Shown one piece after another: positions 8,475 through 63,640 of a stretch of 64,000 nt of DNA. A model generated the notes under the pieces. The model saw nothing but the letters and a program-made list of their open reading frames with translations, was not told the origin of the DNA and ran no database searches. The stretch is from positions 82,749,495 to 82,813,494 of the forward strand of contig JALGPY010000005.1 in the NCBI GenBank assembly GCA_023055425.1, read 5' to 3'. Source of the DNA: Linanthus parryae. Taxonomy: Eukaryota > Streptophyta > Magnoliopsida > Ericales > Polemoniaceae. Numbering within the stretch: the stretch's first letter is position 1; each line of letters opens with the position of its first letter. The position numbers were made by a program, and so were the translations under genes.

Positions 8475-8971
8475 TATGGTTTGGGAGAATAAGAGAGATG
8501 TAGGATAGATACGAAAGAGAGAAGGAGATAATAAGATAAAAGTGAAGAGTTTGAGTTTGAAAAGGTAACTAAAATAATTTCTGATCTTAGAAGATCCTGA
8601 GTTATCAGAAATTATTCAAAATCTTTGATGCCGTTGGAAAGAAATAATATTATACTCTATTTGGCTAAAAAGGAATTTTAAAAAATGAGAGACAATATTG
8701 AGCAAATATCTAGAAAGATAGCACCCAATATTGAAAGATCCAGAGTTGATTGAATAGCAATTACATAGACTTATTTTCAAGGCCTTGAAAAGCATTTCAA
8801 GGCCCTGAAAAGCCGTTTTACTGAAACACATATAATCAAAGCTTTGAAAAGATTTCAAGGCTGTGAAAATCAGTTCAAACCATTGAACCACATAAAATCT
8901 TACCTTACTTACCTGATGCTCCACCTGAACCAATGCATCTTTGTTTAGCATGCCTAACTCCAATCTTAGAT
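8475..8971 (-). other. Spacer between RNase H and extra ORF of element A
   Basis: No coding sequence is supported. The stretch contains several copies of the TTCAAGGCCTTGAA palindrome family (perfect core at 8778-8787, near-copies around 8799, 8840 and 8858). Confidence 0.6.
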
Positions 8972-10640: not shown

Positions 10641-10769
10641 TTCACAGTTTTACGTTCTACAAGAGAGATAAAAGCATTAAAAGCACAAAGATTTTTCAGC
10701 TGTGATCTGGTTTGTGTACCAGTTGTTGTATGTGAAATATGATATCAATAGGATGATATGAGAGATATT

Positions 10770-12080
10770 TTAATCTCTTTCAAGGTGACCAAGGTTCAGG
10801 CTCTCCAGGTTGTTTCTCAAGTCTCTGAGAAATTGAAGTAGTGGCTTGATCTCGTGTCTTTTCCAGAGGTTCTGTTTCAAGGATTTGAACCTTAGTTTCA
10901 AGGCCTTGAAAATGCCTCCTTTGTTCCTGTGAGATATCCTTGCAACCTTTTGAGAATTCTTCTTCAGTATCTGAATCATGCTTGTTCAGGTTAAGATCTA
11001 CAAAACCATCACTCAAAGAACCATCATAGCTTTCATCAAAAATAACATGACTACTTTCTTCTACAAGCTTGGTTATCTTATTATAAACACCATAGGCTTT
11101 CATTGTATTTAAATATCTAAGAAAAATACCTTCATCACTTCTTGTATCAAACTTACAAAAAATTTCCTTACTATTATTGTGGATAAAACAGGTACAACAA
11201 AAAGGTCTGAAGAAATAAATGTTTGGCTTTATTCCTTTGAATAGCTCATAGGGATCTTCAAGATAGGTCTGATCAAGCACCTGTTTAGAATATTGTTTGT
11301 TGTATTCACAGCTTTTGCACAGTAATATTTTGGAAACTTGTTTTCAAGAAGCATTGTTATTGACATGTCTTCAAGAGTCCTGTTCTATCTTTCAAAAACT
11401 CCATTATGTTGAGGAGTTCTAGGAACAGAGAATTTGTGAGAGATACCATGCTTAGAACAGAAAATATCAAATTCTAGAGTATCAATGGGTCTAGAGGTAC
11501 TTACAAAGTTCTTTGGTATGAAGGAGCTTCTAGTTTGCTTGCCTTGAGCACATGCTTTGCAAACTTTTTCATCTTTGAACTTGATAGAGGGTAATCCTCT
11601 TACTAAGATTCAGGACTAGTTTATTCAAAGTGTGCAAGCTAATTTTTCCAAACTTTTTGTGCCAAAGGATTGAATCTTCTTTCAAGGCCTTGAGACACTG
11701 CTGATTTTCTTCTACAACTTTGTTGGTTTGAAAAAGTATAGACATTGTTTGGCCTAGAGGCAGTAATGATGCAATTTCCAAATTTCTCCTCATGAACCAC
11801 ACATTTCTCTTTGTCAAAAATAACCATATTACCATTATCACAAAGCTGAGATACACTAAGCAATTTAAATTTCAAACCATCAACTAGATATACATCAGAA
11901 ATAGAGTTTTCAAATCAGTACCAACTTTTCCAATACCAATAATGTTTCATTTGCCTTTGTCACAAGTGTGATTGAACCTTCAGATTGCACTTTCAATTAT
12001 GAGAATAAAGATCTCATTCTAATCACGTGTCTTGAGCAACCACTGTCCATAAACCATTTTTGTTCTTTGTTCTTGGTGAC
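10770..12080 (-). pseudogene. Protease and integrase remnants of element A
   Basis: From 12080 downwards the frames encode an aspartic-protease DSGCSRH motif, then KFKLLSVSQLCDNG (from 11875), a GAG-pre-integrase 'WHKKFGKI' segment near 11680, and integrase core fragments. The segment from 11280 gives DPYELFKGIKPN, F-x-RPFCCTCFIHN and SDEGIFLRY, typical of the copia integrase C-terminal region. Many stops and frameshifts are present. A perfect CAAGGCCTTG lies at 11683 at the same place as in element B (56722). Confidence 0.7.
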
Positions 12081-13531
12081 AACCTGCAAACACCAATCAC
12101 TTCCTTAACCATCTATTAAACCAAGTGTGGAATTTGGATTCATATTAAGGATCAACCATGTTAGGTGGTTTAACCCCCTTGGGAACCCAAATCTGTCTAA
12201 CTTATCCTTTGAGTTGGAAGGGAAACGAGTTCCTCATTTTGCGAGGGTCTCTTCTTCGGAAAGGACAAGTCATTTTAACATGACCAAATTTCTTTCAGTA
12301 ATGGAAGTTAGGAGAAGTTTTGCTTTCATCTTTCAAAAATCAGGTATTGTTCTTTCTTGGAAAATTTGGATTTTATGCAATACCTGTTTTTTGAACAGAC
12401 TTTGAACTTCCTACAAGAATCAGATTCAAAGTGTGTTCTTAGCCTACAAGCTTGGTTTTAATTGATTCAGACTTTTGAAGTTTCTCCGTTAGAGCAGTCC
12501 TTTGTTTATCTAATTCATCAACTTGATGTCCCAGATTAACAATGCTATCACTCAAAGATGAGTTCTCAGTGACTATATCCTTGACTTGTGTTTTCAAGGC
12601 TTTGAAACTGGTATTCAAGGCTTTGAAATCACTATAAATTTTCTTCTGAGAAATTTCAAGATTCTAATTCAAGCAAACAAGCTTCAAATTTTCTTTTGCT
12701 TGCTCATGAACTTTTTCTTTCAAATATCTTATTTCTTTCAGATATTCCTCTTCAGTTAAAAGCATTGTTATGAGATAATCTGAGACAACTTCTGTTGGTT
12801 TTGAAATTAAACAGTTTACCATTACCACAATGTTCTTTTCAGAACTGTCATCATGTTTGGCCATAAAACATAGGTTGGCATGCTATTCTTCAGAATCGGA
12901 GTCACTTGAAGTTTCTGAATCACTCCATGAAGCTATCATAGTTTTCTTTCTTCTATCATGATCGTTCTTATGAAAATTCTTGCTTTTCTTGTGCTGAAAA
13001 TCTCTTATCAAGTGTCTTGAATCACCACACTAAAAGAAATTCATAACTTTAGGCTTATTCCCATGTGAAGAATATTTACCTTTGTAGTCCTTGCTACTGG
13101 AGGATCTGTGTCTTCCTCTGTTGAATTGCTTGTTTCCAAAGTTTTTCTTCATTTTGAGAATTCTCATCAAGGCTTCGGAAATCAAATCATATGGATATTC
13201 ATCATCATCTTCAGTTTCAAGGCTTTGAGATGACTCATTTCCCTTTGCCTTGAGAGCGTGGTTCTTGACACTTTCTGGTAATGCTTCATCAGCTTGACTC
13301 ATTTTCCTTTGCCTTGAGAGCTAGGTCCTCAGATTTAGGAGTTTTGATCCCATCTTTCTCTGTGTAGAAAGTGTGAGGACCATTCTGAATGATAGTCCAA
13401 AGCTCTATGTCTTAATCAATGATGAACATTTTCATCAAATTTTTCTAATGAACAAAATTATCTCCACACAAGAAAGGAGGTATGTTAGCAGCACTTTCCT
13501 GAGAGAAACCACCATTACCTGATGTACTCAT
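12081..13531 (-). pseudogene. Gag of element A (internally deleted)
   Basis: ATG at 13531 opens a frame resembling the UBN2-type gag of elements B and D (STSGNGGFSQESAAN, then PPFLCGDNF). It soon meets stop codons, and the middle of gag is missing compared with B. The segment 13302-13030 resembles the SQSLETEDD region of B's gag; 12864-12664 resembles the MAKHD...coiled-coil part. A second zinc-knuckle-like block (GHVKMTCPFR) is near 12270. Gag would form the virus-like particle shell. Confidence 0.65.
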
Positions 13532-13560
13532 AATCACAAGATGGTTATATTTATGCAGTG

Positions 13561-13579
13561 ATACAAGCTCTGATACCAA
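13561..13579 (-). promoter_or_regulatory. Primer-binding site of element A
   Basis: Directly inside the LTR edge the minus strand reads TGGTATCAGAGCTTGTAT, matching the 3' end of plant initiator tRNA-Met, the usual minus-strand primer for copia elements. Confidence 0.75.
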
Positions 13580-13580
13580 T

Positions 13581-14826
13581 TGAAAGGGTGTACAGTAGGT
13601 AGAAATGCAGGATCAATACTCTAGAGAGGGGGTTGAATATAGTATGCCACCTTTTGCTAACACTTGCAAGAGAAGTGGTTTCAAAAGAGTTTGTATATAA
13701 AAAGTGTAGTTCAAGGCCTTGAACTGAGTTTCAAGTCCTTCGGATGAAAACAGTTATGTATAAAGAGAAGAAGTCTATTTCAAGTCCTTGAAATGATTTT
13801 CAAATCCTTGAAATGAAAATGTTTGAAAGCTGCAAGTAAACTAAGTATGAAACTGTAAAGAATATGCAAGAGACACAAGATGTATAGAGCTCAGTCCACT
13901 TGGACCTATGTCTCTACCTCAGGGATCTTCTTCCTCCAGGATTTCCAATTCAATTCTTATTAATCCATAGCTAAGCCCTAGAACTCAAGATTAGAGAGAT
14001 ACCTTACTCTATTACAGCTTGAGGTTCTCACTAACCTATCTTGTACCTGCTCTAGCTATCGGATTAACTAAGAGTTATCTATTTTTCACTTTGAAAAATC
14101 GTTTATAATGAAAGCTAGAAGTTTAAACAAGAAGATATACAAATGTAGTCCACAACAGAAGAACACAGAGAATGAAACTGCGGTAAGAATGCAGTGTTCT
14201 TCTGAGAATTGGATTGAGCATTTGATCTGCTTCTTTGTTGCTTGGAAATCATTCAATGTGGTTGAAAGTCTCTGTTTTTGACCGTTGAGTTGTGTCTTCA
14301 AATTCTTCAAACTGAGCTCCTTTTATACAGCTCATTTGACTTGCAAATCTTCGAGATTTTCAGCAACCAACTTTCCTATTTTGTAGGAAACAACTTTGAA
14401 TTCTCTAACAGTCTTCATTTAACGGATAGTTGATCAGTATCGTCAAAGATACTGATTTGATCTTGTTCATAAACATGTTGAGAAGCTGTCACACGAAATT
14501 GACTGGTCACAGAATCAAATTATCTCTGAATTTCCTTCCATGCAAAACTCAGGTTAGGATGTAAATCCTGTTAAATAGGAAATACATTTTCCTTGCAAAG
14601 CTAAGTCAAACAGATGGATTAAATACTGTTAAACATGTAATAATGCCTCGTCTTTCATTATCAAGTAACAATAGATCAAGCACATGGGTTTATGAGTTCA
14701 GTCAAGATCAGAAGCTCCCCCTAAGTATATGAAGTTGAAACTCAGTCAGTTCCAAGGCATTGAAAGGTGTTTCGAGGCCTATCTATTTCAAGTCTTTAAA
14801 ACTAATGAAACTGAATTGATCTTACA
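13581..14826 (-). repeat. 5' LTR of element A
   Basis: A 1246-bp LTR on the minus strand begins TGTAAGATC (14826) and ends ACACCCTTTCA (13581), next to the primer site. It carries the palindrome core CAAGGCCTTG at 13712 and several near-copies (13738, 13780, 13800). A partial second copy of this LTR, with the same downstream flank, is at 24729-25809. Because the flank is shared, that second copy comes from segmental duplication and not from a separate insertion. Confidence 0.75.
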
Positions 14827-15342
14827 CGATTTTTTTTATTTAGAACTTGAATTTATGGTTTATTGTTTTCTCTCTTCGGTAAAGTTTGATTTTTAGGCTA
14901 TTTAAGTCCTTCTTGTGGTCTTTTTGCCATTGTTGATTGATTATTGAGATTTATAGAAAATATGGAGTTTTTTAAGAACCCCATAGTGGTTCATTCATGA
15001 TTTCCCTTTCTATTCATTTCTTCTTACTGCTCCCATGAACGTCTAGATTCAGTTCAGCGTCATTATCCTCGTCTCTCATTGTCTTCAATGCTTCTTAATC
15101 CTTTCCCCCTCTTCAACGATTATTCTTTCCTGCTGTGCTCTAGATTTGGAACACAGTTCCTTTTCCTCTCTTTTTACAAAATGAATAAATAGATTCAATA
15201 TACATAAAATATTGTTGACAAGTAAGAATATCAGCAGTCAAAAATTTCTACAGTAACTAGTAAAATTTGTGTAGTAATTATCAGCACCATAAACTTTTAT
15301 ATAATCAGAGACATAATATCATATAAAATGCTGAACGTCACC

Positions 15343-15485
15343 ATTTTTTCTCAACCCTTCAAGTTCTCCCCTTATGTGGATTTTTTTTATTTTATGATGT
15401 GCTTATAGAAATATCTTAAAATCGATATTACCAACAATCATATCTTGACACGTAAGAGTTGAACTTGAAGGGTGAAGAAAAAAAG
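15343..15485. mobile_element. Foldback MITE-like element, copy 1
   Basis: About 36-bp imperfect terminal inverted repeats: ACCCTTCAAGTTCTCC near 15354 pairs with GAACTTGAAGGGTG near 15461, with matching T- and A-rich outer ends. Total length is about 143 bp with no coding capacity. No certain target-site duplication was seen, so the superfamily is not assigned. It predates the segmental duplication because copy 2 has it at the same place. Confidence 0.6.
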
Positions 15486-15927
15486 GTAAAGCATACCAGC
15501 CCTCATTTTGAAATAATCACTGTTAACTCTATTTTTAGGAGACTATCATATAATTATTTTTGTGCAATAAATGAAATACCTCTATCCATACAACCTACTT
15601 AGGTTACGAGAGATTTTATAAATTCAACATTTATACGATTTCGAGGTCGACATATGAATTTTATAAATTAAGGAGTGCACAATCAACTAAGTACATGACT
15701 AATTGCACACTTTTGAATTAATCACGGTTAAATAGATTAGAGATGTATATTTGGTATCTTGAAGTTCTACTTAAGAATATTATTTTTATTCAAGGTACAA
15801 CTTTATTAGTAGTTGTATGAATAATTTTTTACAACATAATTATTTTATAATTATGTGTAATTTTATTTTGGTAGTAACATGAAATTTATTTTTGTAGTTA
15901 AGAAACTTATGATTTGATGATAATTTG

Positions 15928-22699: not shown

Positions 22700-23056
22700 A
22701 TGCAAGATAGATGAGTGAACCTATAAATAATGAACCAACTGTTAGAATGTCCCATACTACCCATGATGAACCTATGAATCCACTAACCGTCTCTACCACC
22801 ACAAGCATAGATTCCTCATAGTGAACCTATAAACAACTATACATCTCTAGTACCCACTAACATTGAAGCAACTAATCAACTTCCCCAAACTGCCTCACCT
22901 ATGTAGGTTAATGCTATGGCCAACAATAAACTTTCCCTACTGCACGTTCTATCAAGAATAAGAAATAACAGAGATTGGTTTCTTACCTTAATTTAATTTC
23001 TTAACTTAATTTCAAAATATGTCACGATGATTCCGTTCCCAACACCCCATCAAAGC
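22700..23056. other. Host segment with coding-like scraps, copy 1
   Basis: Short plus-strand stretches read like old exon sequence (NIEATNQLPQTAS, then LLHVLSRIRN) and occur with fewer differences at 29750-29880 in copy 2. No intact frame or recognised family. Confidence 0.3.
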
Positions 23057-23172
23057 CTATGATGAACATCTTCATCAAAGCCTTCTAATGCATGAAATTG
23101 TCAACACAGAACAATGGAGGTCTGTTAGCAGCGCTTCCTTGTGAGAATCCACCATCTCCTACATTACTCATA
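23056..23172 (-). pseudogene. Gag N-terminal fragment of element D
   Basis: About 39 codons from ATG 23172 matching the N-terminus of element B's gag (FSQ, NRPPLFC, DNFMH). Truncated at the junction with the host duplication near 23056. Confidence 0.8.
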
Positions 23173-23204
23173 GTCACCAGATTGTTAGATCTAAAAACAG
23201 TGAC

Positions 23205-23222
23205 ACAAGCTCTGATACCAAT
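23205..23222 (-). promoter_or_regulatory. Primer-binding site of element D
   Basis: The minus strand reads TTGGTATCAGAGCTTGT next to the LTR end, complementary to the initiator tRNA-Met 3' end. Confidence 0.75.
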
Positions 23223-23223
23223 T

Positions 23224-24728
23224 GAAAGTGTGTAATGTAGACTAAATACAGGACCTAAATACTCTAGAAAGGGGGGTTGAATAGAGTATGGAAACTTTTT
23301 GCAAAACTTAAAGTTTAACAGGATAGCTTTGTGTGAAACTTGAAATCTCAAGGCCTTGAGATTTTGTAAACTGTCTGAAACTCACTAAGGCAAAATTGTA
23401 AGCTTCAAGGCCTTGAGCTGTGAATAATTCTAAATAGCATTTAAACCCTAGTTTGATTTGAGTTGTGTGCAGCAGATAATAATCAAACAGAAAAGTAAAG
23501 AACACAAAGCAATTTACAGAGTTCAGTCCCAATGGACCTAATCTCTGCCTGAGAGATCTAATCCCACCAGGATTGGGCAAACACTTCTTATTACTCACAC
23601 AGAAACATCCCTAGATCTGCAAGCCTAAGTGATTTCCCATACACCTATACAGCTTGTGGTTCCAAACCTATCTAGTTCCTGCTACTAACTTTTGAACTAA
23701 CAAGAACCTCTTGTTGTTCACTTGAATAACAAACCACTAGGTTAAGTGAGGTTTAAGATAATATAGAGATACACTGATGAAGTACAAATGAAGAACACAG
23801 TATAAAGATAAGCTGTTGAAGCCTGGATGTGTTCTTCAGGAATGACTGGATTGATTTGATCTTCAGAAGTCTGGAATGAAGCTTGAATAATTGTGTGTTT
23901 GAATGGATGATCTCCCACGAATTTGTCACACCTCTCAGAGTATTATGCAAGCCTCTCCCATCTTCATAATTCAAAACAGTCTCTTTTATCCACAGCTGCA
24001 ACTGATTGAGAGATTTTAGGATCTCTGTTCCTACGAATCCTCCTTCTGTTTTCAACTTAAATTCAAACAACTCTCAGGTGGACATCCGTTGGAGTTTGTT
24101 GTGATTTCTCCTGCACGTTTAACAAACCTGCAATAGCAAAGAAACACTGCAACAACACAATCCAAACAACTAACAGTACTGAGACTGTTTGGTTATACAG
24201 TTTCTGATAAAACAGTTTAATAAATTTAGAACATCAATCTGCATATCCTCTAAATTAAATAAGATATGAAAAACAAGTTCAAGACATTTAGAAGTTAGTG
24301 AATAATGACAATACTAAGAGTCATAATCTGCAAGAAACAATCAATCAAGTTATGTAAAAATTGTCAGTTGCTCAAGGCATATCTCAAGGCCTTGGAGCTC
24401 TGAACCTGCTTCACAGCATTTAAAAAATCAAACCCAGATAACTTTGATTCTTCATGTTCTGATCATCTGCAATTTTGTTAGATCTATAAATAGTACAAAC
24501 CACAAATATATACCATAAACCACTGATTTGAATAATCAGATATCCAATTACGCAACACAAAGATGTTAGAGCACATAGCCGAATAAGCAATCTCAAGGCT
24601 TTGAACTTATGTCAATCTCAAGGCCTTGAGATGACTAACAAGCCTTTGCTGCTAATGTCTTATCCTTTTGTCTTTCATCACTCAAAACAATTACCAATCA
24701 AAGCACATTCAGGGATCTTGACTCAACA
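23224..24728 (-). repeat. LTR of element D
   Basis: 1505 bp; minus-strand ends TGTTGAGTC...CACTTTCA. Length and sequence match the B LTRs (1510 and 1506 bp). Perfect CAAGGCCTTG palindromes occur at 23349, 23406, 24385 and 24619. Confidence 0.88.
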
Positions 24729-25809
24729 GTTAAGTATAAAGAGAAGAAGTCTATTTCAAGGCCTTGAAATGAGTTTCAAAACCTTGACATGAAACTGTTT
24801 GAAAGCTGCAAGTAAACTAAGTATGAAACGGTGAAGAAAATGCAAGAGACACAAAATGTATAGAGCTTAGTCCACTTGGACCTACTTCTCTACCTCAGGG
24901 ATCTTCTCCCTGTAGGATTTCCTACTCAGTTCTTATTAATCCACAGCTAAGACCTAGATCTCAAGCACAGAGAGAAACCTTCCTCTATTACAGCTTGTGG
25001 TTCCCACTAACCTATCTTGTACCTTCTCTAGCTATCGGATTAACTAATAATTCTCTATTGTTAAATTTCAACAATCCCTGAGAATGAAAGCTAGAAGTAT
25101 AAACAAGAATATATACAAATGTAGTCAAGAACAGAAGAACACAGAGAATGAACTGCTGTAAGAAAGCATTGTTCTTCTGAGAACTGGATTGATTATATGA
25201 TCTGCTTCTTTTTATCTTGGCAATCCTTGAATGTGTTTGAATGTCTCTGTTTTTCCCCGTCGAGTTGTTTCTTCAAATGCTTCAAACTGCGCTCCTTTTA
25301 TATAGCTCATTTGACTTGCAAATCTTCCAGATTTTCAGCAACCAACTTTCCTATTTTGTGGGCAACAACTTTGACTTTTCCAACAGTCTTCTTTTAACGG
25401 ATATTCATCAGTATCTTCAAAGATACTAAGTTGATCTTGTTCATAAACATGTTGAGAAGCTGTCACATGAATTTGATTAATCACAGAATCAAATTATCTC
25501 AGGATTTTCTTCCCTGAAAACTCAGGTTAGGAAGTAAATCCTGTAAAATAGGAAATAAATTTTCCCTGCAAAGCTAAGTCAAACAGATTGATTAAATACT
25601 GTTAAACATGTAATACAGCCTTGTCTTTCATCATCAAGTAAAAACAGATCAAGCACATGGGTTTATGAGTTCAGTCAAAATCAGAAGCTCCCCCTAAGTA
25701 TATGAAGTTGAAGCTCAGTCAGTTCCAAGGTAGTGAAAGCTGTTTCAAGGCCTTAAATTGACTAGCTATTTCAAGTATTTGAAACTAATGAAACTGAATT
25801 GATCTTACA
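24729..25809 (-). repeat. Partial A-type LTR at the start of duplication copy 2
   Basis: Matches 13753-14826 of the element A LTR in order, including 'ctccccctaagtatatgaag' and the end ...GATCTTACA, and shares the downstream flank (cggttttttta versus cgattttttttta). The left edge is element D's LTR. It carries CAAGGCCTTG at 24757 inside an 18-bp perfect palindrome. Confidence 0.85.
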
Positions 25810-31975: not shown

Positions 31976-32001
31976 AGGCAAAAAGGGGGCTGGAACACAG
32001 T

Positions 32002-32180: not shown

Positions 32181-32254
32181 GGTCGGGGGTCAGCAGCAGA
32201 TTTTTGGGGCTTTTCCGTATTATTTCCAAACTTTGTAATATTATTATGGGGACG

Positions 32255-32262
32255 TATTTAAG
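32255..32262 (+). promoter_or_regulatory. Possible TATA box of F LTR
   Basis: TATTTAAG lies about 75 bp after the palindrome cluster. It is a weak match, chosen for its position between upstream sites and leader. Confidence 0.3.
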
Positions 32263-44661: not shown

Positions 44662-44677
44662 GTAGTGTGGGGGTAGT
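44662..44677 (+). promoter_or_regulatory. Polypurine tract of element F
   Basis: GTAGTGTGGGGGTAGT directly before the 3' LTR (TGATAAC at 44678). Confidence 0.7.
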
Positions 44678-52880: not shown

Positions 52881-54390
52881 TGTTGATTCAAAGACCCTTG
52901 AATGTGTTTTGGTTGATAATTGTTTTGAGTGATGAAATAAAAAGACAAAGAAAAAAGGAGCAAAGCATTTCAGATACTCCAAGGCCTTGAGATATTGACA
53001 GAACTTCAAAGCCTTGAGAGTTATTCTATTCTGCTATTTGTTCTAACAGATCTGTGTTGCAGATTGGATATCTGATTATACAGATCAGGGATTTACTGCA
53101 TATACTTCTGGATTACACTATTTATATATCTAACACAATTGCAAATGATCAGAACAGGAAGAATCAAAGTTATCTGGGTTGAACTTTGAATATATGTGAA
53201 GAAGGTTCAGAGCTCCAAGGCCTTGAGATGTGTCTTGAGCTGCTGACAGTTTTTACATAACTAAGTTGATTCTTTCTTGCAGGTTATGATTCTTAGTATT
53301 GTGATTAGTTACTCACTTCTAAGTGTCTTAAACTTTTTTTTCATGATTTATATGTATTAGAAGTTATACATGTTTTTGTTCTAATCTCTTAACCAGTTTT
53401 ATCAGAAACTGGATAACCAAACAGTCATAGTACTGTTATCTTTCTGGATTATGTTGTTGCTGTGTTTCAATGCTGTTGCAGGGTTGTTAAACGTGCAGGA
53501 GCAATCTCAAAAAACTCCAACAGATATCCACTTGGAGCTGTTTGAATTTCAGTTCAAAACAGAAAGAGGATTTGTAGGAACTGAGATCCTAAAATCTCTC
53601 AATCAGTTGCAGCTGTGGATAAAAGAGACTGGTTTGAATTTTAAAGGATATAGAGGCTTGCAGGATACTCAGAAAGGAGTGAAAAATTCGTGGGAGATCA
53701 TTCATTCAAAGAAACAAACATTCAAGCTTCAATCCAGATTCTAGAAGATCAAATCAATCCACGTTTTCCGGAAGGACACATTCAGGCTTCAACAACTTAT
53801 CTTTTCTACTGTGTTCTTCACTTGTACTTTAATCTGTGTATCTTTAGAGTATCTTAAACCTCAATTAACCTAGTGGTTGGTTGTTCAAGTGAACAACAAG
53901 AGGTTCTTGTTAGCTCAACAGTTACTAGCTGGAACTAGATAGGTTTGGAACCACAAGCTGTATAGGTGTAAGGGAAATCACTTAGGCTTGAAGATCTAGG
54001 GTTGTTTCTGTGTGAGTAATAAGAAGTGTTTGCTCAATCCTGGTGGGATTAGATCCCTCAGGCAGAGATTAGGTCCATTGGGACTGAACTCTGTAAATCG
54101 CTTTGTGTTCTTTACTTTAAAGTTTGATTACTATCTGCTGCACAAAACTCAAATCAAACTAGGGTTCAAAAGCTGTTTAGAATTGTTTATAGTTCAAGGC
54201 CTTGAAGCTTTCTATTTTGCCTTTGAAAGTTTCAGACAGTTTACTAATATCTCAAGGCCTTGAGAATTGAGTTTCACACAAAGTTATTCTGTTATACTTT
54301 GAATTTTGAAAAAAGTTTCCATACTCTATTCAACCCCCCCCCCTTCTAGAGTATTTAGGTCCTGTATTTAGTCTACATTACACACTTTCA
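52881..54390 (+). repeat. 5' LTR of element B
   Basis: 1510 bp. Perfect CAAGGCCTTG palindromes at 52980, 53216, 54195 and 54253, plus the one-mismatch form at 53007. Confidence 0.94.
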
Positions 54391-54392
54391 AT

Positions 54393-54406
54393 TGGTATCA
54401 AAGCTC
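54393..54406 (+). promoter_or_regulatory. Primer-binding site of element B
   Basis: TGGTATCAAAGCTC, the initiator-Met tRNA complement with one A for G, two bases inside the LTR. Confidence 0.8.
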
Positions 54407-54440
54407 ATGTCACTGTTTTAGATCTAACAATCTGGTGACT

Positions 54441-56314
54441 ATGAGTAATGTAGGAGATGGTGGATTCTCACAAAGAAGGGCAGTCAACAGACCTCCATTG
54501 TTCTGTGGTGATAACTTCATGCACTGGAAGGCATTGATGAATATGTTCATCATAGATCAAGACATGGAAATATGGTCAATAGTTCAAAATGGTCTTCATG
54601 AGTATTACAGTACAATTGTTGGAGTCAGATGTATCAAGTTTGCGGAAAATCTTTCAGTTACTGAACTGGAAAAGGTATCAAAAAATTACAAGGCTATGAA
54701 TCTGTTATACTGTGCTCTTAATGCAGATGAGTTTAACAGAGTGTCAAATTGCAAGAGTGCCAAAGAAGTATGGGATAAACTGGTGGTGACATATGAAGGA
54801 ACTAGTCAGGTTAAGAAGACAAAAATCAACATACGTCTAAGGCAATATGATTTGTTCAAGATGAACTCAGATGAGACAATCAAGGAGATGTTCAAAAGAT
54901 TCACTGATGTGGTGAACAATCTGGAGTCATTGGGAAAGAGGTTCTCAAATGAAGAGAAGGTCAGAAAGATTCTGAGAAGCTTGCCAAAAGCCAAGTGGGA
55001 GCCAAAGACAACATCCATTGAGGAAGCTCAGGACTTGAGTCTTCTTCAGCTAGATGATCTACAAGGAAAGATGCTCACTCATGAAATGTCTATGAAGGAT
55101 GTGGAAGGTGATTTGAGTGAAAACATCAAGAACCTAGCACTTAAGGCAAAATACAGTGAAAAGTCTCAAAGCCTTGAGACTGAGGATGAGCCTGATGATG
55201 AAGAGGCTTTAGCATTTTTCTCCAAGGCCTTGGCCAGGATTCTCAAAAAGAAAAGAAACTCTGGTAACAGGGATTACAACAGAGATAGATCAAGACCCTC
55301 AGGCAGCAAGGACTACAATAGTAAACCTTCATTACAGTCACATAAAACTAAAGTAATCAATTGTTTGGAGTGTGGTGATGCAGATCATTTAGTAAGGGAC
55401 TGTCCACAAAAGAAGAAGAACAGGAACTTCAGAAGAAAGACAGTGACAACAGAAGGAAGAAATCCATGATGGCTTCTTGGAGTGATTCTGATTCATCAAG
55501 TGACTCAGACACAGAAGAAGAGCAAGCAAACTTATGCTTCATGGCAAAGCATGATGAGGAAAATTCATCTGACATACATATTGAAGATATGGTAAAAAAT
55601 TTACTTGCTAGTCCTTCTGATGTACTTCCTGATATTCTCAAAAATATGTTTTTAAATGAGGAAAGTTATAGAAATGAGATTTCTGCTTTAAAGATTAAGT
55701 TTCATGAGCAGATAAAAGAAAACCTGGACCTAGTTTTTTCAAACAAAACTGTTGAAGTCTCTAAGACAAAGCTTGAAAATGACTTCAAGGCCTTGGACAG
55801 CAGGTTCAAAGCCTTGAAGGCACAGATAAAAGAGGTTGTTGATCAAAACACTCTTTTGACTGAAAGATATGCTGATCTGAAGACTCATTAGGAGAATTTA
55901 GAACAGCGGATCTATTATTTGACTGAGAAACTTCAAGATTCCAAGAAGGTCCTAGCTAGGTTTACAGGCTCAAAACATAATATGAATCTCATTCTTGGAG
56001 GAAGTCTGAAATCAATGCATAAAAGTGGGATTGGCTATAATCCAAATTTTCCAAAGAAAAGCCAAACTACTTTTATCAAATCTGGTAGCAGACATTCTCC
56101 AAAATGTCATTACTGTGGAAAATTTGGTCATGTCAGATTAACTTGTCCCTTCAGAAGATCAGAACCTCACACTATGAGGAATACTTATCCTTATCAGCTT
56201 AAGGGACAGGTTAGGCAGATTTGGGTTCCAAAAGGGATTAGGCCACCAAACATGGTTGATTCAGAGTATAACTCAAAGTTTTGCACTTGGTCTAATAGCC
56301 TGTTGAGGCAATGA
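54441..56314 (+). pseudogene. Gag of element B (frameshifted)
   Basis: ATG 54441 (MSNVGDGGFSQRR). The UBN2-type gag core has NFMHWKALMNMFI, KSAKEVWDKLVVTYEG and LRSLPKAKWEP; a first zinc knuckle CLECGDADHLVRDC is near 55368. A frameshift near 55465 moves to a second frame with SWSDSDSSSDSDTEEE, a coiled coil, a stop at 55889, and a second zinc knuckle CHYCGKFGHVRLTC near 56107. Gag would package RNA; zinc knuckles bind it. The palindrome CAAGGCCTTG falls here at 55223 and 55786, in different codon phases. Confidence 0.88.
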
Positions 56315-56321
56315 TTTATTT

Positions 56322-56732
56322 TTGCAGGATGTCACCAAGGCCTTGAAAGATCAGAAGTGGATATTAGACAGTGGATATTCCAGACATATGTGTGGAAAGA
56401 AGTCTCTCTTCACTGAACTTACAGAAAAATCTGGAGGAACAATCACACTTGGTGACAAAGAAAAATGCAATATCATTGGTATAGGTAGTATTGGTTATGG
56501 TTCTACAAATTCTATATCTGATGTTTATCTGGTAGATGGACTTAAGTATAATTTGCTTAGTATCTCTCAGTTATGTGATAAAGGGTATAAGGCTAAATTT
56601 GACAAGGAGAAATGTGTGGTGCAAGATGAGAAATCTGGTGATTGCATACTCACTGCTCCTAGATCATATAATCTATATGCTATGAATACTAACAGTGTTG
56701 CAGGTGACAAGCTAAAAGCCTCAAGGCCTTGA
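56322..56732 (+). pseudogene. Aspartic protease of element B
   Basis: Catalytic region is WILDSGYSRHMCG (copia proteases usually have DSG-[AC]-[ST]), followed by GSTNSISDVYLVDGLKYNLLS and SQLCDKGYKAKFD. The frame ends at the palindrome site 56722-56731; integrase begins in another frame. Confidence 0.85.
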
Positions 56733-57919
56733 AGGAAGATTCAAAGCTTTGGCACAGAAAGCTTGGGCATATTGGTATACATACCTTGAATAAAATCTTC
56801 TCAAAAGACTTAGTAAGAGGTTTACCATCACAGAAATTTTCAGATGATGAGGTTTCCACGGCATGTGTACAAGGTAAACAAACCAGAAGCTCATTCAAGC
56901 CAAAGAACTTTGTAACTACTTCTAGACCCTTAGAATTGCTTCATATGGACTTGTGTGGTCCTATGAGAGTTCAGACCCCAAAAGGTAAGAGGTATATGCT
57001 TGTTATAATTGATTATTATTCTAGATATACTTGGGTGATGTTTATTAGAGACAAAACTGAAGCTTTATCTGAATTTTCTAGACTATGCAAAGAGCTTCAA
57101 ACTTTGAAAAATTTACCTCTTGCATCCATTAGAAGTGATCAAGGTAGGGAGTTTGATCAACTTGACTTTGATTTGTTTTGTGCAAAGCATGGCATTTCAC
57201 ACAACTTCTCTGCACCTAGAACTCCACAGCAAAATAGAGTAGTTGAAAGGAAGAATAGGACACTTGAGGATATGTCCAGAACCATGCTTCTTGAAAGTAA
57301 TTTGCCAAAGTTTTTATGGGCATAAGCTGTTAACACTACCAATTATGTGCTGAATAGATGCTTGATTAGACCTATTTTGAAAAAGACCCCCTATGAACTG
57401 TTTAAAGGTAGAAAGCCTACTGTTTCTTATTTCAAACCTTTTGGTTGTATCTGTTTTGTGCATAATAATGGTAGAGACAATCTTGGTAAGTTTGATGCTA
57501 GAAGTGATGAAGGTGTATTTCTTGGATACTCTCAAACTAGCAAAGCCTATAGAGTTTATTATAGAAAAACCAAGATTGTGGAAGAGAGCATTCATGTAAT
57601 CTTTGATGAAAGTACTAATGACTCTCTGAGTGAAAGTTTTGCAGATCTAGATTTGAACAAGCATGAATCAGATGATGATGCTATGGAAGAAGACAAAGGC
57701 AAAACTAATGTGCAAAATCAATCATCAGAATCTCAAGGCCTTGAACCTCTTGCTGAACCAAAATCTCAAAGCCTTGAGACAGAAGCTGAAACTTTCTATG
57801 ATGCTCCCTCTACTGTTTCAAGGACTCAAAGCCTTGAAGGAGAATACTCTTGGGTACCAAGAAAGAAGTTTAAGTACCTTGCAGACCATCTAGCTGATGA
57901 CATTCTATCAGATCCATGA
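56729..57919 (+). pseudogene. Integrase of element B
   Basis: GAG-pre-integrase LWHRKLGHIGIHTLN; zinc-finger residues; catalytic Asp in HMDLCGPMR, Asp in SDQGREF and Glu in VVERKNRTL, all present. TAA at 57323-57325 interrupts it where Glu is expected before AVNTTNYVLNR. The second part has CLIRPILKKTPYELF, SDEGVFLGYSQTSKAYRVY and an acidic linker containing three SQ-[GS]-LE-type repeats encoded by the palindrome family (57734, 57767, 57837). The linker ends at TGA 57917. Confidence 0.88.
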
Positions 57920-59482
57920 ACTGGAACTCAGATAAGAGGACAGTTGAAGAAATTTTGTGCTTTTAGTGAATTTGTATCTTTCATTGAGCCTAAGAATACC
58001 AAGGAAGCACTAGAAGATGCAGAATGGATCATTGCAATACAGAGTGAGCTGAATGAGTTTGAAAGGAACGAGGTTTGGAATCTGGTCCCCAGACCTAAAG
58101 AGAAATCAGTTATTGGAACCAGATGGGTATTCAGAAACAAGCTTGATGAGAATGGCAAAGTGGTAAGAAATAAAGCCAAACAGGTAGCTCGAGGATATAA
58201 TTAGGAAGAAGGTATAGATTATGAGGAGACTTTTTCTCCTGTTGCCAGGTTAGAAGCTATTAGAATACTTCTTGCATTTGCATCTCACAATCACAAAAAA
58301 CTTTATCAAATGGATGTTAAATGTGCTTTTTTGAATGGATATTTACAAGAAGATGTTTTTGTAGCACAACCTCCTGGTTTTGAAGATGAAAACTTTCCTG
58401 ATCATGTTTATAAACTGGATAAAGCTCTTTATGGTTTAAAACAAGCTCCAAGGGCTTCGTATGACAGACTTTCAAAATTTCTACTTGAAAACAATTTCAA
58501 AAGAGGCTTAGTTGACAAAACTCTTTTCATTAAACACCATCAAAGTGATCTGTTAGTAGTTCAGATTTATGTAGATGATATTTTATTTGGTGCTACTAAT
58601 GATGCTCTTTCAAAAGAGTTTTCTTGTCTGATGTGCAGGGAGTTTGAGATGAGCCTAATGGGTGAACTGAATTTCTTTCTTGGACTTCATTTCTTACAAA
58701 TGAAAAAAAAGGAATTTTTGTGCATCAAGGAAAGTATACCAAGGACTTATTGAATAAGTACAATAAGTCACAGTCCAAGGTGCTTAAGACCCCTATGAGT
58801 TCATCACTCTCTTTAGACAAATATTCAAATGTTAAGAGTGTGAATCAAAAGGAATACAGAAGTATGATTGGATCACTATTATATTTAACTGCTAGCAGAC
58901 CTGATATTATGTTCATTTTCTGTATGTGTGCTAGATTTCAAGCAGATCCTAAGGAAAGTCATTTAACTGCAGTCAAAAGAATTTTTAGATATTTGAATGG
59001 AACTAGAGACTTAGGGCTCTGGTATCCAAGAAGATCTAATTTTATGTTGAGTGGCTATTGAGATGCAGATTTTGCAGGATATAAAGTAGACAGGAATAGT
59101 ACTTCTAGATGTTGTCAATTTCTTTGATCTTCATTGATGAGTTGGCATTCCAAAAAGCAAAAATTTTGTAGCCTTATCAACTGCAGAAGCTGAATATATT
59201 GCAGCTGGTGCGTGCTGTTCACAAGTGTTATGGATTGCTCAGCAACTTAGAGATCTTCGCTATAATTTCATAAATGAGCCTATTCATTGTGACAACAAAA
59301 GTGCTATTTCAATCTCTAAGAATCCAGTTCAGCACTCAAGGACCAAGCACATAGATGTGAGACATCACTTCCTTAGAGATCGTGCAGAAAAAGGTGATGT
59401 TGTTTTAAATTTTATCTCTACTTCAATGCAGATTGCTAATATTTTCACTAACCTTTGCCAGATGATAGGTTTTCATCTCTAA
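57920..59482 (+). pseudogene. RT and RNase H of element B
   Basis: RT: EPKNTKEALEDAEWI, VWNLVPRPKEKSVIGTRWVF, MDVKCAFLNGYLQEDVFV, catalytic YVDD at 58568-58579. RNase H: CCQFL, then CDNKSAISISKNPVQHSRTK. Damage: TAG at about 58202 (Gln expected), frameshift at an A-run near 58708, TGA at 59059 (Ser expected), and frameshifts around 59125-59170. Confidence 0.9.
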
Positions 59483-59969
59483 GACTTGAATTGGGGATGT
59501 TAAACAAGGATGCATTGGTTTAGGGGGAGTGTTAGTACTTATATGTGTTTATGTGATGAATATCAAAGCCTTGAGATTATACTTTCTGAAGCCTTGAAAG
59601 TATATCTCAAAGCTTTGATGTTTCTCAAAATGCAGAAAATCTTAAGGCCTTGAGATTGTTCTCCAGGTCTTGATAATATCTGTAATTTAAAAAAAAATGG
59701 ATCATCAAATGTTATATCTTATCTTTTTAGATAATTGTATAATATTTTAATTACTCAGAGAATTTTCTAAAATATCCCAAAAATATTTTTCAATATCCTT
59801 TTTTTGCATGTTGATATAGCAGAGTCCTTTTATGACTCATCCTTTTCAACCTACTTAAGCTGAAAGTCTGGGCTTTTTCTTCTCATTCTCTCTCAATTCT
59901 GTACGACTCTACTCTCTCTCTCTGAGTTTCTCTCAAACACATTCTCTTCTCAAAACCCTAAACCCCAAA
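59483..59969 (+). other. Spacer between RNase H and extra ORF of element B
   Basis: Non-coding; contains palindrome variants at 59564 and 59641 and a CT-rich leader (59880-59950) before the extra ORF. A subgenomic promoter or splice acceptor here is possible but not identified. Confidence 0.5.
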
Positions 59970-61690
59970 ATGGAGCGCAAATCAGCCAGAATTCAGCAAC
60001 TGGGAAAGCCCTCTGGCAGATCCAAGAAGAGAGCAAATAAGAAGGAGAAGATAGGGATTTCTGATTCAGATTCAGAAAACACTCAGAGCTTGCATGACGA
60101 TACTCCTCCTGCAAAGAAGTCCCGAACAGAGAAGGGAGATGAACGCTCAGGCATTGATCCACAACAAGAGACACATGGTGGTGATCAACCTAGGTCAGAG
60201 AAGAAGAAAGGGGAGAAAAGAAAAAGAGTAGTGAAGAGGAAAAAGGGGAAATCAACTCAAGAAAGCCAGAAGAAATCATCTGAAGGAGGACAAGAAAAGA
60301 CCAAACCCTCAGAGAAGAAAACTAGGGTTAAGCAAGTTGCTGCTGCAACTAAGAAAGGATATCAAGGTAAGAATGTACTTCCTACAGACTGGTTTGTCCG
60401 TTCTGAGGTTAGAACTGTATGGATGCAAGGGTATGCTTCATCTAAGGTAGCTTTTTGTAGTATGATTTCTGAAGAATTATTGGATAAATTGGACATTGAC
60501 TGCATGAGAAAGTAAAGAGAAACTCTTGTTTGGAAGGTGTTAAATCCTAGTTCAAAGGCCTATCCTAGGTTAACTAGGTTATTTTATCTGAATTTAGTTT
60601 CTGAAGGTGATGATAAAATGGTGTTAACTTCAAAAGTGGCTGGTGTGGATTGAGGTTAGATCATAGGACTTTTGCCAAGGTCCTGGGCATTCCTAAGAAA
60701 TACAATATTGGAAATTACCCTGATAGGAAGGAATGTTTGGATAAGGCAAAGGAGATGTTTTTTATTGAAGGTGTTCCCTCTGGTCCAAAGCAGTTGACAC
60801 ACTCGGTGCTCAACTGTGAAGCCAAAATCTTGTTTACAATTCTGATGAGGAGTGTAGTTTCCAGAGAGAACACAAGGGAGTTAGTGAATGATAAGGTTCT
60901 GATTTTTATGTATCTGATATCTCAAGGGTTTGAGATAGACTTGCCAACAGTTGTTATGGAGCATATGATTTATCGTGCAACCAGGACTAGAAACCATCCT
61001 CTTCCATATGCAAACCTGTTACCTCTTTTCTTTGAATATTTTGATGTACCTGTAAAAGGAGAGGAAAATATTACTGGAGTTTTTGGGTTGATAGATGAGA
61101 CTGCACTTCAGAGGATTGGAGTAGTTCAGACAGGGAAAGGACATTGGAAGTTTTATTCAGATTTTTCAAAGGCAGAACTTGCTGAGAAGGACTTTGTGAA
61201 GCCTAAGGGGACTACATCTGGAAAAGGACAAGCCAATGAGGATTACTCTTTGTTGGTTGAGAAGTTAGAAGATCAGCAGGTTGAGATTGAAGATCTCAGA
61301 CAAAGGTTATTTGATCTGTCAACTGAATTCAACCAGTTCAAGGGCTTGATGAATGTTATGAATGGGAAGCTGGATGTTGTCATCAAGGGCTTGAATCTGG
61401 AGAAGATACCTTCTGCTACTAGTCATGACACCAGTGTGGATTCAGATGAAAGGCTGGGAGATTATCAGAAGAAGAAGAACAAGCCAATTCCAATGGTGCT
61501 TACTTCAAAAGATTTGTATGAACAAACTGATGAAGAAGATGCTGGTGAAGACACAGGTGTTGATGCAGCTACAGAGGTGGATTCAGTACAGGCTAAGAAG
61601 AAAGTGGATGAGATAATTCAAGAGGTTGTTGCAGAAGTGGAAGCTGAACAAGAAGGTAATCAGTCTGCTGAAGATGCTGCAAGTGAATAA
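59970..61690 (+). pseudogene. Extra ORF of element B ('putative plant transposon protein'/env-like type)
   Basis: ATG 59970 starts a Lys/Ser-rich region with basic clusters (KKRANKKEK; KRKRVVKRKKGK). The central domain continues through a TAA at 60513 and a one-base frameshift near 60650 into RTFAKVLGIPKKYN, LTHSVLNCEAKILFTILM, DLPTVVMEHM and HPLPYANLLPLFFEYF, resembling the Transposase_32-type domain. Residues near 61240-61400 form a coiled coil and the C-terminus is acidic. Function unknown; 'envelope-like' is only a label by position. Confidence 0.75.
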
Positions 61691-62118
61691 GAAGTTGGAG
61701 AAGGCTCAGCGAAAGGCCAGACATCAAAGAAGAAGTGAAGATCAGAGATTGCCAAAGCCTTGACCCTCTATCTATTTCTCTTCTTTCTTTTTTTTTCTCA
61801 AGGCCTTGACTTTTTGGCTAAAATTTTGTTAAGTTATTAGACTCTGAGTAATGATCGAACATTTCTTCATCCTTATTTGATGAAAGTCAAAAAGGGGGAG
61901 AATTTATGTGGTTCTGTGTTTGCAGTATTTGAATAATAATAATACTTAGTTGTTTCATAATCAGTTGTGTTTATATTTTTGTGGTAATATGTAAATTTTC
62001 TTTTTGCAGGTTATTTGTTTGGCATTATTTCGTGATTGTATCTGCATTTTGTGGTTGTCTAATTTTGAATATAAGTGGCAGGAAAATCTATACAAGACTG
62101 TAGGATTTGTCTTTCATC
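61691..62118 (+). other. 3' spacer of element B
   Basis: Non-coding. Has palindromes at 61753 (one mismatch) and 61799, and an internal polypurine-like 'tcaaaaagggggagaat' near 61889 that is conserved in element A (reverse at 7677-7693). Confidence 0.6.
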
Positions 62119-62129
62119 AAGGGGGAGAT
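62119..62129 (+). promoter_or_regulatory. Polypurine tract of element B
   Basis: AAGGGGGAGAT directly before the 3' LTR TGTTG. Confidence 0.85.
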
Positions 62130-63635
62130 TGTTGATTCAAAGACCCTTGAATGTGTTTTGGTTGATAATTGTTTTGAGTGATGAAAGACAAAGACAAAGA
62201 CATAAGCAGCAAAGCATTTCAGATACTCCAAGGCCTTGAGATATTGACAGAACTTCAAAGCCTTGAGAGTTATTCTATTCTACTATTTGTTCTAACAGTT
62301 CTGTGTTGCAGATTGGATATCTGATTATACAGATCAGGGATTTACTGCATATAGTTCTGGATTAAACTATTTATATATCTAACACAATTGCAGATGATCA
62401 GAACAGGAAGAATCAAATTTATCGAGGTTTAACTTTGAATATCTGTGAAGAAGGTTCAGAGCTCCAAGGCCTTGAGATGTGTCTTGAGCTGCTGACAGTT
62501 TTCACAAAACTAAGTTGATTCTTTCTTGCAGGTTATGATTCTTAGTATCGTGATTATTTACTCACTTTTAAGTGTCTTAAACTTTTTTTACATGAATTAT
62601 ATGTATTAGAAGTTATACAGGTTATTGTTCTAATCTGTTAACCAGTTTTATCGGAAACTGGATAACCAAACAGTCATAGTACTGTTATCTTTCTGGATTT
62701 TGTTGTTGTTATGTTTCAATGCTGTTGCAGGGTTGTTAAACGTGCAGGAAAAATCTCAACAAAATCAAACGGATATCCACTTAGAGCTGTTTGAATTTCA
62801 GTTCAAAACAGAAAGAGGATTTGTGGGAACTCAGATCCTAAAATCTCTCAATCAGTTGCAGCTGTGGATAAAAGAGACTGGTTTGAATTTTAAAGGAGAT
62901 AGAGGCTTGCAGGATACTAAGAAAGGTTTGAAAAGTTCGTGGGAAATCATTCATTAAAACAAACAAACATTCAAGCTTCAATCCATATTCCAGAAGATCA
63001 AATCAACACAGTTTTTCAGAAGGACACATCCAGGCTTCAACAGCTTATCTTTTCTACTGTGTTCTTCACTTGTACTTTAATTTGTGTATCTTTAGATTAT
63101 CTTAAACCTCAATTAAACTAGTGGTTAGTTGTTCTAGTGAACAACAAGAGGTTCTTGTTAGCTCAACAATTAGTAGCTTGAACTATATAGGTTTGGAACC
63201 ACAAGCTATATAGGTGTAAGGGAAATCACTTAGGCTTGAAGATCTAGGGCTGTTTCTGTGTGAGTAATAAGAAGTGTTTGCCCAATCCTGGTGGGATTAG
63301 ATCCCTCAGGCAGAGATTAGGTCCATTGGGACTGAACTCTGTAAATCGCTTTGTGTTCTTTACTTTACAGTTTGATTACTATCTGCTGCACACAACTCAA
63401 ATCAAACTAGGGTTCAAAGGCTGTTTAGAATTGTTTACAAATCAAGGCCTTGAAGCTTTCTATTTTTCCTTTGAAAGTTTCAGACAGTTTACTAAAATCT
63501 CAAGGCCTTGAGATTTGAGTTTCACACAAAGTTATTCTGTTAAACTTTGAATTTTGAAAAAAGTTTCCATACACTATTCAACCCCCCCTTCTAGAGTATT
63601 TAGGTCCTGTATTTAGTCTACATTACACACTTTCA
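62130..63635 (+). repeat. 3' LTR of element B
   Basis: 1506 bp; palindromes at 62229, 62465, 63443 and 63501, all at the same places as in the 5' LTR. The 63501 copy is the centre of a 22-bp perfect palindrome (63495-63516). Confidence 0.94.
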
Positions 63636-63640
63636 GTTAC
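63636..63640 (+). repeat. Right target-site duplication of element B
   Basis: GTTAC, matching 52876-52880. Confidence 0.93.

What the first reader, a model, noticed from the sequence alone, without database searches (positions are those of the whole stretch)
52881..63635. A 10-bp palindrome, CAAGGCCTTG, is scattered through the SIRE-like elements
Element B has 14 exact copies: 52980, 53216, 54195, 54253, 55223, 55786, 56336, 56722, 57734, 61799, 62229, 62465, 63443, 63501. Many more have one change (CAAAGCCTTG at 53007, 55167, 55807, 57767, 57837, 59564, 61753). Element A has exact copies at 7791, 8778, 10899, 11683 and 13712; D at 23349, 23406, 24385 and 24619. I saw none outside these elements. 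A given 10-mer is expected about 0.06 times in 64 kb. Copies fall in LTRs, spacers and coding DNA in different codon phases, so DNA or RNA, not peptide, seems conserved. Several are at matching places in A and B. It could be a dimeric-protein site, an RNA dimerisation or packaging signal, or a small-RNA target.
Basis: seen in the sequence. Interest (0 to 1): 0.87.

Follow-up and report, generated by a model that had tools for sequence, protein, structure and literature searches.

The report
Directional near-palindrome repeated throughout SIRE retrotransposons
A plant jumping gene of the SIRE/Sirevirus group carries a 10-letter near-palindrome many times along its length, inside its genes too; it appears to be kept by selection on the DNA or RNA itself and nearly always faces the same way, which points to a recognition code used by the element or its host.

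Summary
CAAGGCCTTG occurs 24 times in the window (0.05 expected) and 75,209 times in the 1.51-Gb genome, against 423 for the reversed control. Of 20 loci picked for motif clusters, 15 have SIRE protein hits; 5 loci at regular coordinates have neither. The site is not a plain palindrome. Read along the element it is CAARGSYTTG, with symmetric T-rich and A-rich flanks. Its variants are strand-biased: CAAAGCCTTG 51, mirror form 2; 22 homology groups against 1; tandem order 12,058 against 419 genome-wide. Tandem copies sit mostly 20 or 21 bp apart. In coding DNA it is far above synonymous-codon shuffles (13 against 0.4), and codon choice at its sites is unusually conserved between loci (0.86 against 0.67), so nucleotides, not peptide, are conserved. 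Hairpin covariation is weak and not established. It is best filed as a variant of the palindromic repeated motifs published for Sireviruses (PMC2829016), differing in core, direction and presence in coding DNA. The most likely mechanism is a directional DNA-binding site; an RNA packaging or assembly signal is the main rival.

The parts
52881..54390 (+). 5' LTR of SIRE element B; exact copies at 52980, 53216, 54195, 54253 and CAAAGCCTTG at 53007
54391..54404 (+). Sirevirus-type junction and primer-binding site ATTGG-TATCAAAGC (one change from the published TATCAGAGC)
   Evidence: sequence; published junction
54372..55469 (+). gag open frame (PF14223); motif at 55167 (phase 0) and 55223 (phase 2)
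55379..55891 (+). open frame after gag with a tandem motif pair 21 bp apart, 55786 and 55807
56708..57919 (+). pre-integrase/integrase/SH3 frames; motif at 56722+56742 (20 bp apart), 57734, 57767, 57827
58205..58753 (+). reverse transcriptase piece (PF07727), free of the motif
59522..59660 (+). linker before ORF3: PPT octamer at 59522 and motif variants at 59564, 59608, 59643
59859..61690 (+). two open pieces (59859-60515 and 60617-61690) of the env-position ORF3; the second matches PF20167 below its cut-off here (37 bits, cut-off 45), while longer frames in L006 and L014 pass it; motif at 60923, 61339, 61384
61753..61808 (+). 3' linker copies at 61753 (CAAAGCCTTG) and 61799 (exact)
62120..62127 (+). 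terminal polypurine tract AGGGGGAG, starting exactly 10 bp before the 3' LTR; further copies at 59522 and 61893
   Evidence: rule
62130..63638 (+). 3' LTR of element B; copies at 62229, 62256 (CAAAGCCTTG), 62465, 63443, 63501
7751..15800 (-). SIRE element A, minus strand (segment taken as oriented): exact copies 7791, 8778, 10899, 11683, 13712; CAAAGCCTTG in element sense at 12595, 12616, 13218
23049..24766 (-). Element D: minus-strand LTR (23223-24728) with a gag piece; copies 23349, 23406, 24385, 24619; 24757 lies just beyond its LTR in the neighbouring repeat

Best explanation
CAAGGCCTTG is the high-copy repeated motif (RM) of this SIRE/Sirevirus lineage: a cis-acting recognition site, sense form about YYYCAARGSYTTGRRR, spread through LTRs, linkers and coding DNA and kept at the nucleic-acid level in one fixed direction. 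The mechanism I think most likely is sequence-specific double-stranded DNA binding. Near-dyad half-sites, often in tandem two helical turns apart (20-21 bp), would be bound cooperatively by an element-encoded or host regulator acting along the whole element, either on transcription or on silencing, as VANC proteins act on VANDAL motifs. Shown: abundance, presence in SIRE elements, direction, spacing, and nucleotide-level conservation in coding DNA. Inferred: that a protein binds it, that it does so on DNA, and what the binding does.
For: Abundance: 24 exact copies against 0.05 expected; 75,209 genome-wide against 423 for the reversed control; TTCAAGGCCTTGAA 35,440 against 4. In 264 kb (the window plus 20 loci picked for the motif) there are 92 exact copies, and 12 scrambled palindromes have none. 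SIRE link: SIRE protein hits in 15 of those 20 loci, and 77 of the 92 copies lie within 2.2 kb of such a hit; no exact copy and no protein hit in 5 loci of 10 kb at regular coordinates. Nucleotide-level constraint: 13 exact copies in 45 coding HSPs against 0.40 in synonymous shuffles (maximum 3 in 300), CAARGSYTTG 42 against 2.8; leave-one-out codon identity 1429/1666 = 0.858 against 0.672 +/- 0.030, 0 of 400 random sets as high; 44 of 45 coding sites shared with another locus. Direction: 51 to 2; noncoding 37 to 0; 22 groups to 1, p 5.7e-6; 12,058 to 419. Symmetric half-site preferences beyond the core. Spacing: 33 neighbours at 20 and 12 at 21, none at 19 or 22-24, in 13 distinct homology pair groups. 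A 10-bp near-dyad with two-turn spacing and no clear helix covariation fits DNA binding somewhat better than an RNA helix. Precedent: VANC21 binds a dispersed nine-base motif arrayed in one direction and often in tandem (PMC5735166, passages).
Against: A fixed direction is not expected for a symmetric dimer on double-stranded DNA; it needs an asymmetric binder or a directional function, or it points to RNA. The 20-21 bp spacing could come from tandem duplication of one unit instead of selection on spacing. No binding protein was identified; the fold prediction of ORF3 failed (pLDDT 32). VANC motifs lie mainly in noncoding DNA, whereas this motif is also in coding DNA. Covariation signals at pairs -2/+2 and -4/+4 and the count of double changes (3 of 500 shuffles as high) leave room for an RNA hairpin.
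Confidence: 0.45

Rival explanations
1. RNA-level signal: each copy is a short stem-loop (stem ..UUUCAA/UUGAAA.., tetraloop RGSY) of the genomic RNA, bound by Gag at many dispersed places to select and package the RNA, much as RGAG-loop packaging signals are proposed to work in hepatitis B virus.
For: The motif reads one way along the transcript and in B it spans LTRs, gag, integrase, ORF3 and linkers. TCAA-N4-TTGA is far more common with a 4-nt gap (158) than with gaps of 2, 3, 5, 6, 7 or 8 (2-16 each), and 78 of 93 one-change variants differ in the middle four bases. Of 9 stretches folded as RNA (chosen by me, one a tandem pair), 5 had z of -1.9 or lower. Double changes are above shuffles (57 against 43.7, 3 of 500), and at -2/+2 within homology groups 4.3 of 7.4 weighted double changes are compensatory, 0 in neighbouring registers. 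HBV precedent from starts of abstracts.
Against: Helix pairing is not clearly above shuffles (72.1% against 70.9 +/- 1.1, 79 of 500 as high), and an off-register pair shows as much association as the in-register ones. The inner three bases are CAA in 90 of 91 hairpins with 5-bp stems and RGSY loops, so they do not covary. Mismatches in the sense strand are C.A more than U.G and AGCC more than GGCT, the opposite of wobble tolerance in sense RNA. Three of the 9 stretches fold worse than shuffles.
Confidence: 0.3
2. Cis-regulatory palindromes that are hotspots of small RNAs and hairpin formation, as described for maize Sirevirus LTRs; host silencing and element promoter need pull the same sites in opposite ways.
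For: Same element group and the same kind of palindromic high-copy motif; small-RNA hotspots at Sirevirus LTR palindromes are reported (passages). A tandem pair can form a longer hairpin (-21.4 kcal/mol for 55777-55825).
Against: No small-RNA data here. Copies in integrase, gag and ORF3 coding DNA are conserved at synonymous level, which silencing targets alone would not favour. Pairing between tandem units shows no excess.
Confidence: 0.1
3. By-product of mutation: units spread by local tandem duplication, template switching or gene conversion during reverse transcription, without function.
For: Tandem units of 20-21 bp suggest duplication; weak symmetric co-change of flanks could come from template switching.
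Against: Copies lie in many separate homology groups and in all codon phases. Synonymous conservation between loci implies purifying selection.
Confidence: 0.1

Closest known systems
Repeated motif (RM) boxes of Sireviruses (Bousios et al. 2010, PMC2829016)
   Same: High-copy palindromic motif in Sirevirus LTRs and linker, different in letters from element to element.
   Different: Core AAGGCCTT, without the CGG-CCG signature or any CpG; also in gag, integrase and ORF3 coding DNA; degenerate copies are directional; tandem spacing of 20-21 bp. None of the 13 published RM consensus sequences in Table 3 is CAAGGCCTTG.
[quoted passage not shown] 2016; not held; known here only from passages in PMC10760457 and PMC5311732)
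   Same: Clustered palindromes in Sirevirus LTRs, hairpin potential.
   Different: Maize motif is CACCGGACNNNGTCCGGTG and described for LTRs; small-RNA role untested here.
VANC21 target motif YAGTATTAY in VANDAL21 (PMC5735166, passages)
   Same: Short motif at high density in one element family, same orientation, often in tandem repeats.
   Different: VANDAL elements are not LTR retrotransposons; the motif is mainly in noncoding DNA; a VANC protein is shown to bind it, none is known here.
Dispersed RGAG-loop packaging signals of hepatitis B virus (starts of abstracts PMC7612645, PMC8677749)
   Same: Many short sites along the RNA of a reverse-transcribing element.
   Different: RNA helix not established here; no Gag binding data.

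Membership tests
Sirevirus (Ty1/copia) element | PPT octamer AGGGGGAG starting 10 bp before the 3' LTR | tested here: met
   62120-62127, LTR from 62130; rule
Sirevirus (Ty1/copia) element | Several PPT copies in the linker | tested here: met
   59522, 61893, 62120
Sirevirus (Ty1/copia) element | 5' LTR junction CA/ATTGG and PBS TATCAGAGC | tested here: met
   CA-ATTGG-TATCAAAGC at 54389-54404, one change in the PBS (rule)
Sirevirus (Ty1/copia) element | Inverted repeat around the PPT/3' LTR junction | tested here: inconclusive
   CTTTCATC at 62111-62118 and GATGAAAG at 62180-62187 read by eye; no statistic
Sirevirus (Ty1/copia) element | Copia gag, integrase, RT domains; RT phylogeny in the Sirevirus clade | tested here: inconclusive
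   Pfam PF14223, PF00665, PF07727 found; no RT tree was built
Sirevirus repeated motif (RM) | Palindromic, at least 8 copies per element (published count: 3' LTR plus linker) | tested here: met
   B has 14 exact copies (8 in the two LTRs, 6 internal); in 3' LTR plus linkers alone 5 exact, 9 with CAA-N4-TTG variants
Sirevirus repeated motif (RM) | CGG-CCG core forming CpG islands (core in 12 of 13 published RMs) | tested here: not met
   Core AAGGCCTT has no CG; seen directly in the sequence; rule. CpG islands were not computed
Sirevirus repeated motif (RM) | Found in LTRs and the linker next to ENV | tested here: not met
   It is there, but not only there: 13 exact copies in 45 gag/integrase/RT/ORF3 coding HSPs
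VANC-type self-recognition | Dense motif in one direction, tandem repeats | tested here: met
VANC-type self-recognition | Motif mainly in noncoding DNA | tested here: not met
VANC-type self-recognition | Element-encoded protein binds the motif and removes methylation | not testable with these tools
   ORF3 is PF20167; fold prediction failed
Dispersed RNA packaging signal | Conserved stem by compensatory change around a loop motif | tested here: inconclusive
   Pairing not clearly above shuffles, double changes above
Dispersed RNA packaging signal | Bound by Gag or capsid protein | not testable with these tools
   none

The most novel reading that the evidence does not exclude
The motif is a directional self-recognition code written along the whole retrotransposon, coding DNA included, and read by a protein encoded by the element itself. 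The candidate is ORF3 (PF20167), in the place where Sireviruses have their envelope-like gene, acting as a regulator or anti-silencing factor. An unrelated Ty3-type element in the same window, which also has a PF20167 ORF3, would then use its own code, CTTCGTRCGAAG, in both LTRs and in a copied LTR block before ORF3.
Probability: 0.12. Interest if true: 0.88.

Novelty: new variant of a known kind. Interest (0 to 1): 0.62.

Why it matters
The palindromic repeats published for Sireviruses were described as LTR and linker features, mostly with CpG cores, and without a common binding factor. Here the motif also runs through coding DNA, is protected at synonymous sites, has a direction and a tandem spacing of 20-21 bp, and is present about 75,000 times in one plant genome. 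This makes it testable which molecule reads the repeats, and whether reading happens on DNA or RNA.

Tried and rejected
Peptide constraint: rejected, because synonymous shuffles keep the protein but lose the motif. Simple symmetric dsDNA dimer site without direction: disfavoured by strand bias. Base-composition bias as cause of the strand bias: in the oriented SIRE sequence AGCC and GGCT tetramers are about equally common overall, 266 and 240. RNA hairpins with the RGSY loop and other stems: 1 of 91. Long hairpin between tandem units: no excess pairing. A first clustering of sites by short flanks collapsed almost all into one cluster and was replaced by 150-nt homology groups. A first codon-identity test picked its columns by shared motif and so was biased; it was replaced by the leave-one-out test. 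The motif pair in IMG/VR: 3 stretches, none with SIRE protein hits. Rfam at gathering threshold: only a bacterial-type LSU rRNA piece in the window. Homologues of the 357-aa ORF3 piece in the protein collection: none at E 0.001. ORF3 against solved structures by sequence: only weak matches, mostly to coiled-coil constructs, best E 0.029. ORF3 fold: unusable, pLDDT 32. ORF3 against the Plant-mobile-domain protein at 4760-5551: no match. Papers holding the 10-mer as text: 43, of which 20 were listed, none on retrotransposons by title; papers holding 'retrotransposon' and the inner 8-mer: 14, none on plant LTR elements by title.

Not done: comparison with SIRE elements of other plants (no plant DNA collection at hand); genome-wide flank counts CTCAAGGCCTTGAG and TTCAAGGCCTTGAG, and the spacing control N12-40 (not completed).


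Full report
Observation. The 10-mer CAAGGCCTTG occurs 24 times in the 64-kb window, against 0.05 in dinucleotide shuffles, and 44 times with up to one mismatch, against 1.86. It or its inner or 12-base form is the most frequent palindrome of 8, 10 and 12 bases in the window. The genome that holds the window (1.51 Gb, 121 contigs) has 75,209 exact copies; the same letters read backwards, itself a palindrome, have 423. TTCAAGGCCTTGAA has 35,440, its control 4.

Where it lies. Element B is a Sirevirus by published structural marks: PPT AGGGGGAG exactly 10 bp before the 3' LTR with further copies at 59522 and 61893, and the junction CA-ATTGG-TATCAAAGC (rules). Its gag, integrase and RT match copia families. 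No RT tree was built, so the name rests on these marks. Of twenty 10-kb stretches chosen for motif clusters, 15 have hits to B proteins; L013, L019, L022, L023 and L024 have none, and the L013 copies have flanks like B's LTR copies. Of 92 exact copies in these stretches and the window, 77 lie within 2.2 kb of a usable SIRE protein hit and 15 do not. Five stretches at regular coordinates gave no exact copy and no SIRE protein hit; one has a single TCAA-N4-TTGA with another centre, one (L028) shares about 1 kb of another repeat with several motif loci and window 20496-21515, and one (L027) resembles the Ty3 element. That is a small control: 2.5 exact copies would be expected there if copies were evenly spread.

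Not a plain palindrome. In sequence oriented by protein hits (about 117 kb in 19 segments), the variants are one-sided: CAAAGCCTTG 51 and its mirror 2; CAAGGGCTTG 10 and 0; CAAGGGTTTG, two changes, 8 and 0. Some rarer variants are not one-sided, for example CAAGACCTTG 5 and 2, CGAGGCCTTG 3 and 2. With CAA-N4-TTG the middle four bases are GGCC 77, AGCC 51 (mirror GGCT 2), AGCT 15, GGGC 10, GGGT 8, so the sense form is CAARGSYTTG. In noncoding DNA alone AGCC is 37 to 0. Counting homology groups instead of copies, 22 vote for the sense direction and 1 against for the four main asymmetric centres (p 5.7e-6); AGCC alone is 15 groups to 2 (p 0.002), GACC 4 to 2, GTCC 1 to 2. Without any orientation by genes, the tandem order GGCC then AGCC (10-11 bp between) occurs 12,058 times genome-wide and the opposite order 419 times, reversed controls 0.

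Selection on nucleotides. 254 sites fall into 77 homology groups by 150-nt flanks. In 45 coding HSPs (25,167 nt) there are 13 exact copies, against 0.40 in synonymous-codon shuffles (maximum 3 in 300), and 42 CAARGSYTTG against 2.8 (maximum 7); all three phases occur. With the columns chosen from one locus and codons compared only among the others, identical codons for the same amino acid are 1429 of 1666 (0.858) at motif columns and 0.672 +/- 0.030 in random blocks, 0 of 400 as high; 44 of 45 coding sites have the motif in at least one other aligned locus. The loci are related and some may be copies of one family, so these numbers are not all independent.

Spacing. Adjacent sites peak at 20 (33) and 21 (12) bp, with none at 19 or 22-24, and scattered values from 17 and 18 and from 25 upward. 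The 44 pairs at 20-21 bp belong to 13 distinct homology pair groups. That is about two turns of B-form DNA; duplication of a unit of that length is the other reading.

DNA or RNA. Among sites chosen for CAA-RGSY-TTG, the flanks prefer T before and A after the core, symmetrically out to about three bases, with weaker purine/pyrimidine preference at the fourth. For an RNA hairpin with this centre as loop, pairs should covary. On one to three sites per group (89 sequences) paired cells are 72.1% against 70.9 +/- 1.1 in shuffles (79 of 500 as high), double changes 57 against 43.7 (3 of 500), covariation score 0.155 against 0.130 (13 of 500). In-register association is slightly raised at -1, -2 and -4, but the off-register pair (-1,+2) is raised as well. 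Within homology groups, double changes at -2/+2 are compensatory in 4.3 of 7.4 weighted cases and in none in the neighbouring registers, and within tandem units pairing at position 2 is 0.83 against 0.66; these favour pairing. Against it, sense mismatches are C.A rather than U.G and AGCC rather than GGCT, and the inner three bases are CAA in 90 of 91 such hairpins. Of nine stretches folded, five did well and three worse than shuffles. I put DNA binding at 0.45 and an RNA signal at 0.30.

Known context. Bousios et al. 2010 (abstract, found passages and sections 6, 8, 9, 10, 12, 19 read) list palindromic repeated motifs in 13 Sireviruses, in LTRs and before the env gene, 12 with a CGG-CCG core; none is this one. 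The 2016 maize study was not held; passages in two later papers say that LTR palindromes are small-RNA hotspots, with the copia motif CACCGGACNNNGTCCGGTG. VANC21 (passages) binds a short motif arrayed in one direction. HBV packaging signals were seen only as starts of abstracts. In the listings, seen as titles and starts of abstracts, I saw no report of this motif in a retrotransposon; one search listed 20 of 43 papers, and most subscription papers are not in that library.

A parallel nearby. A Ty3-type element in the same window carries CTTCGT[AG]CGAAG (or its mirror) in both LTRs and in a block before its third ORF; that block is an 80% copy of the LTR block. The third ORFs of both element types match PF20167 above its cut-off (SIRE ORF3 of L014 56 bits and of L006 70 bits, Ty3 ORF 54 bits, cut-off 45), though B's shorter piece stays below it (37 bits) and does not align with the Ty3 ORF by BLASTP. 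This is the ground for the bold reading that ORF3 reads the repeats; nothing tests it yet.

Verdict. A real, apparently selected, directional repeat. Known kind (Sirevirus repeated motif), new variant; function inferred, not shown.

Noticed in passing
window 31998-32180, 40165-40346, 45134-45298: Ty3-type element (LTRs 31545-33161 and 44675-46291, 99.75% identical) has its own palindrome CTTCGT[AG]CGAAG in both LTRs, and an 80% copy of that LTR block before its third ORF (40973-42388, PF20167): an LTR-derived block that could drive ORF3.
   Followed up: partly
window 38091-38473 (minus): Piece of bacterial-type large-subunit rRNA (Rfam RF02541, 144.8 bits), perhaps of organelle origin, inside the Ty3 element between its RT/integrase frames.
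   Followed up: no
SIRE ORF3 (L006:7098-8477, L014:4381-5823) and window 40973-42388: The env-position ORFs of a Ty1/copia and a Ty3 element share the Pfam family PF20167.
   Followed up: partly
window 13749-17318 and 24725-28232: Direct repeats about 90% identical, 10.9 kb apart, with D's LTR next to the second copy; 24757 and 13781 are homologous motif sites in them.
   Followed up: no
window 4760-5551 (minus): Open frame with a Plant mobile domain (PF10536, 54.5 bits).
   Followed up: no
L014 8331-8289, L020 8597-8639 (integrase region): Triple tandem units 21 bp apart with core order GACC, GGCC, AGCC, the same order in two loci.
   Followed up: no
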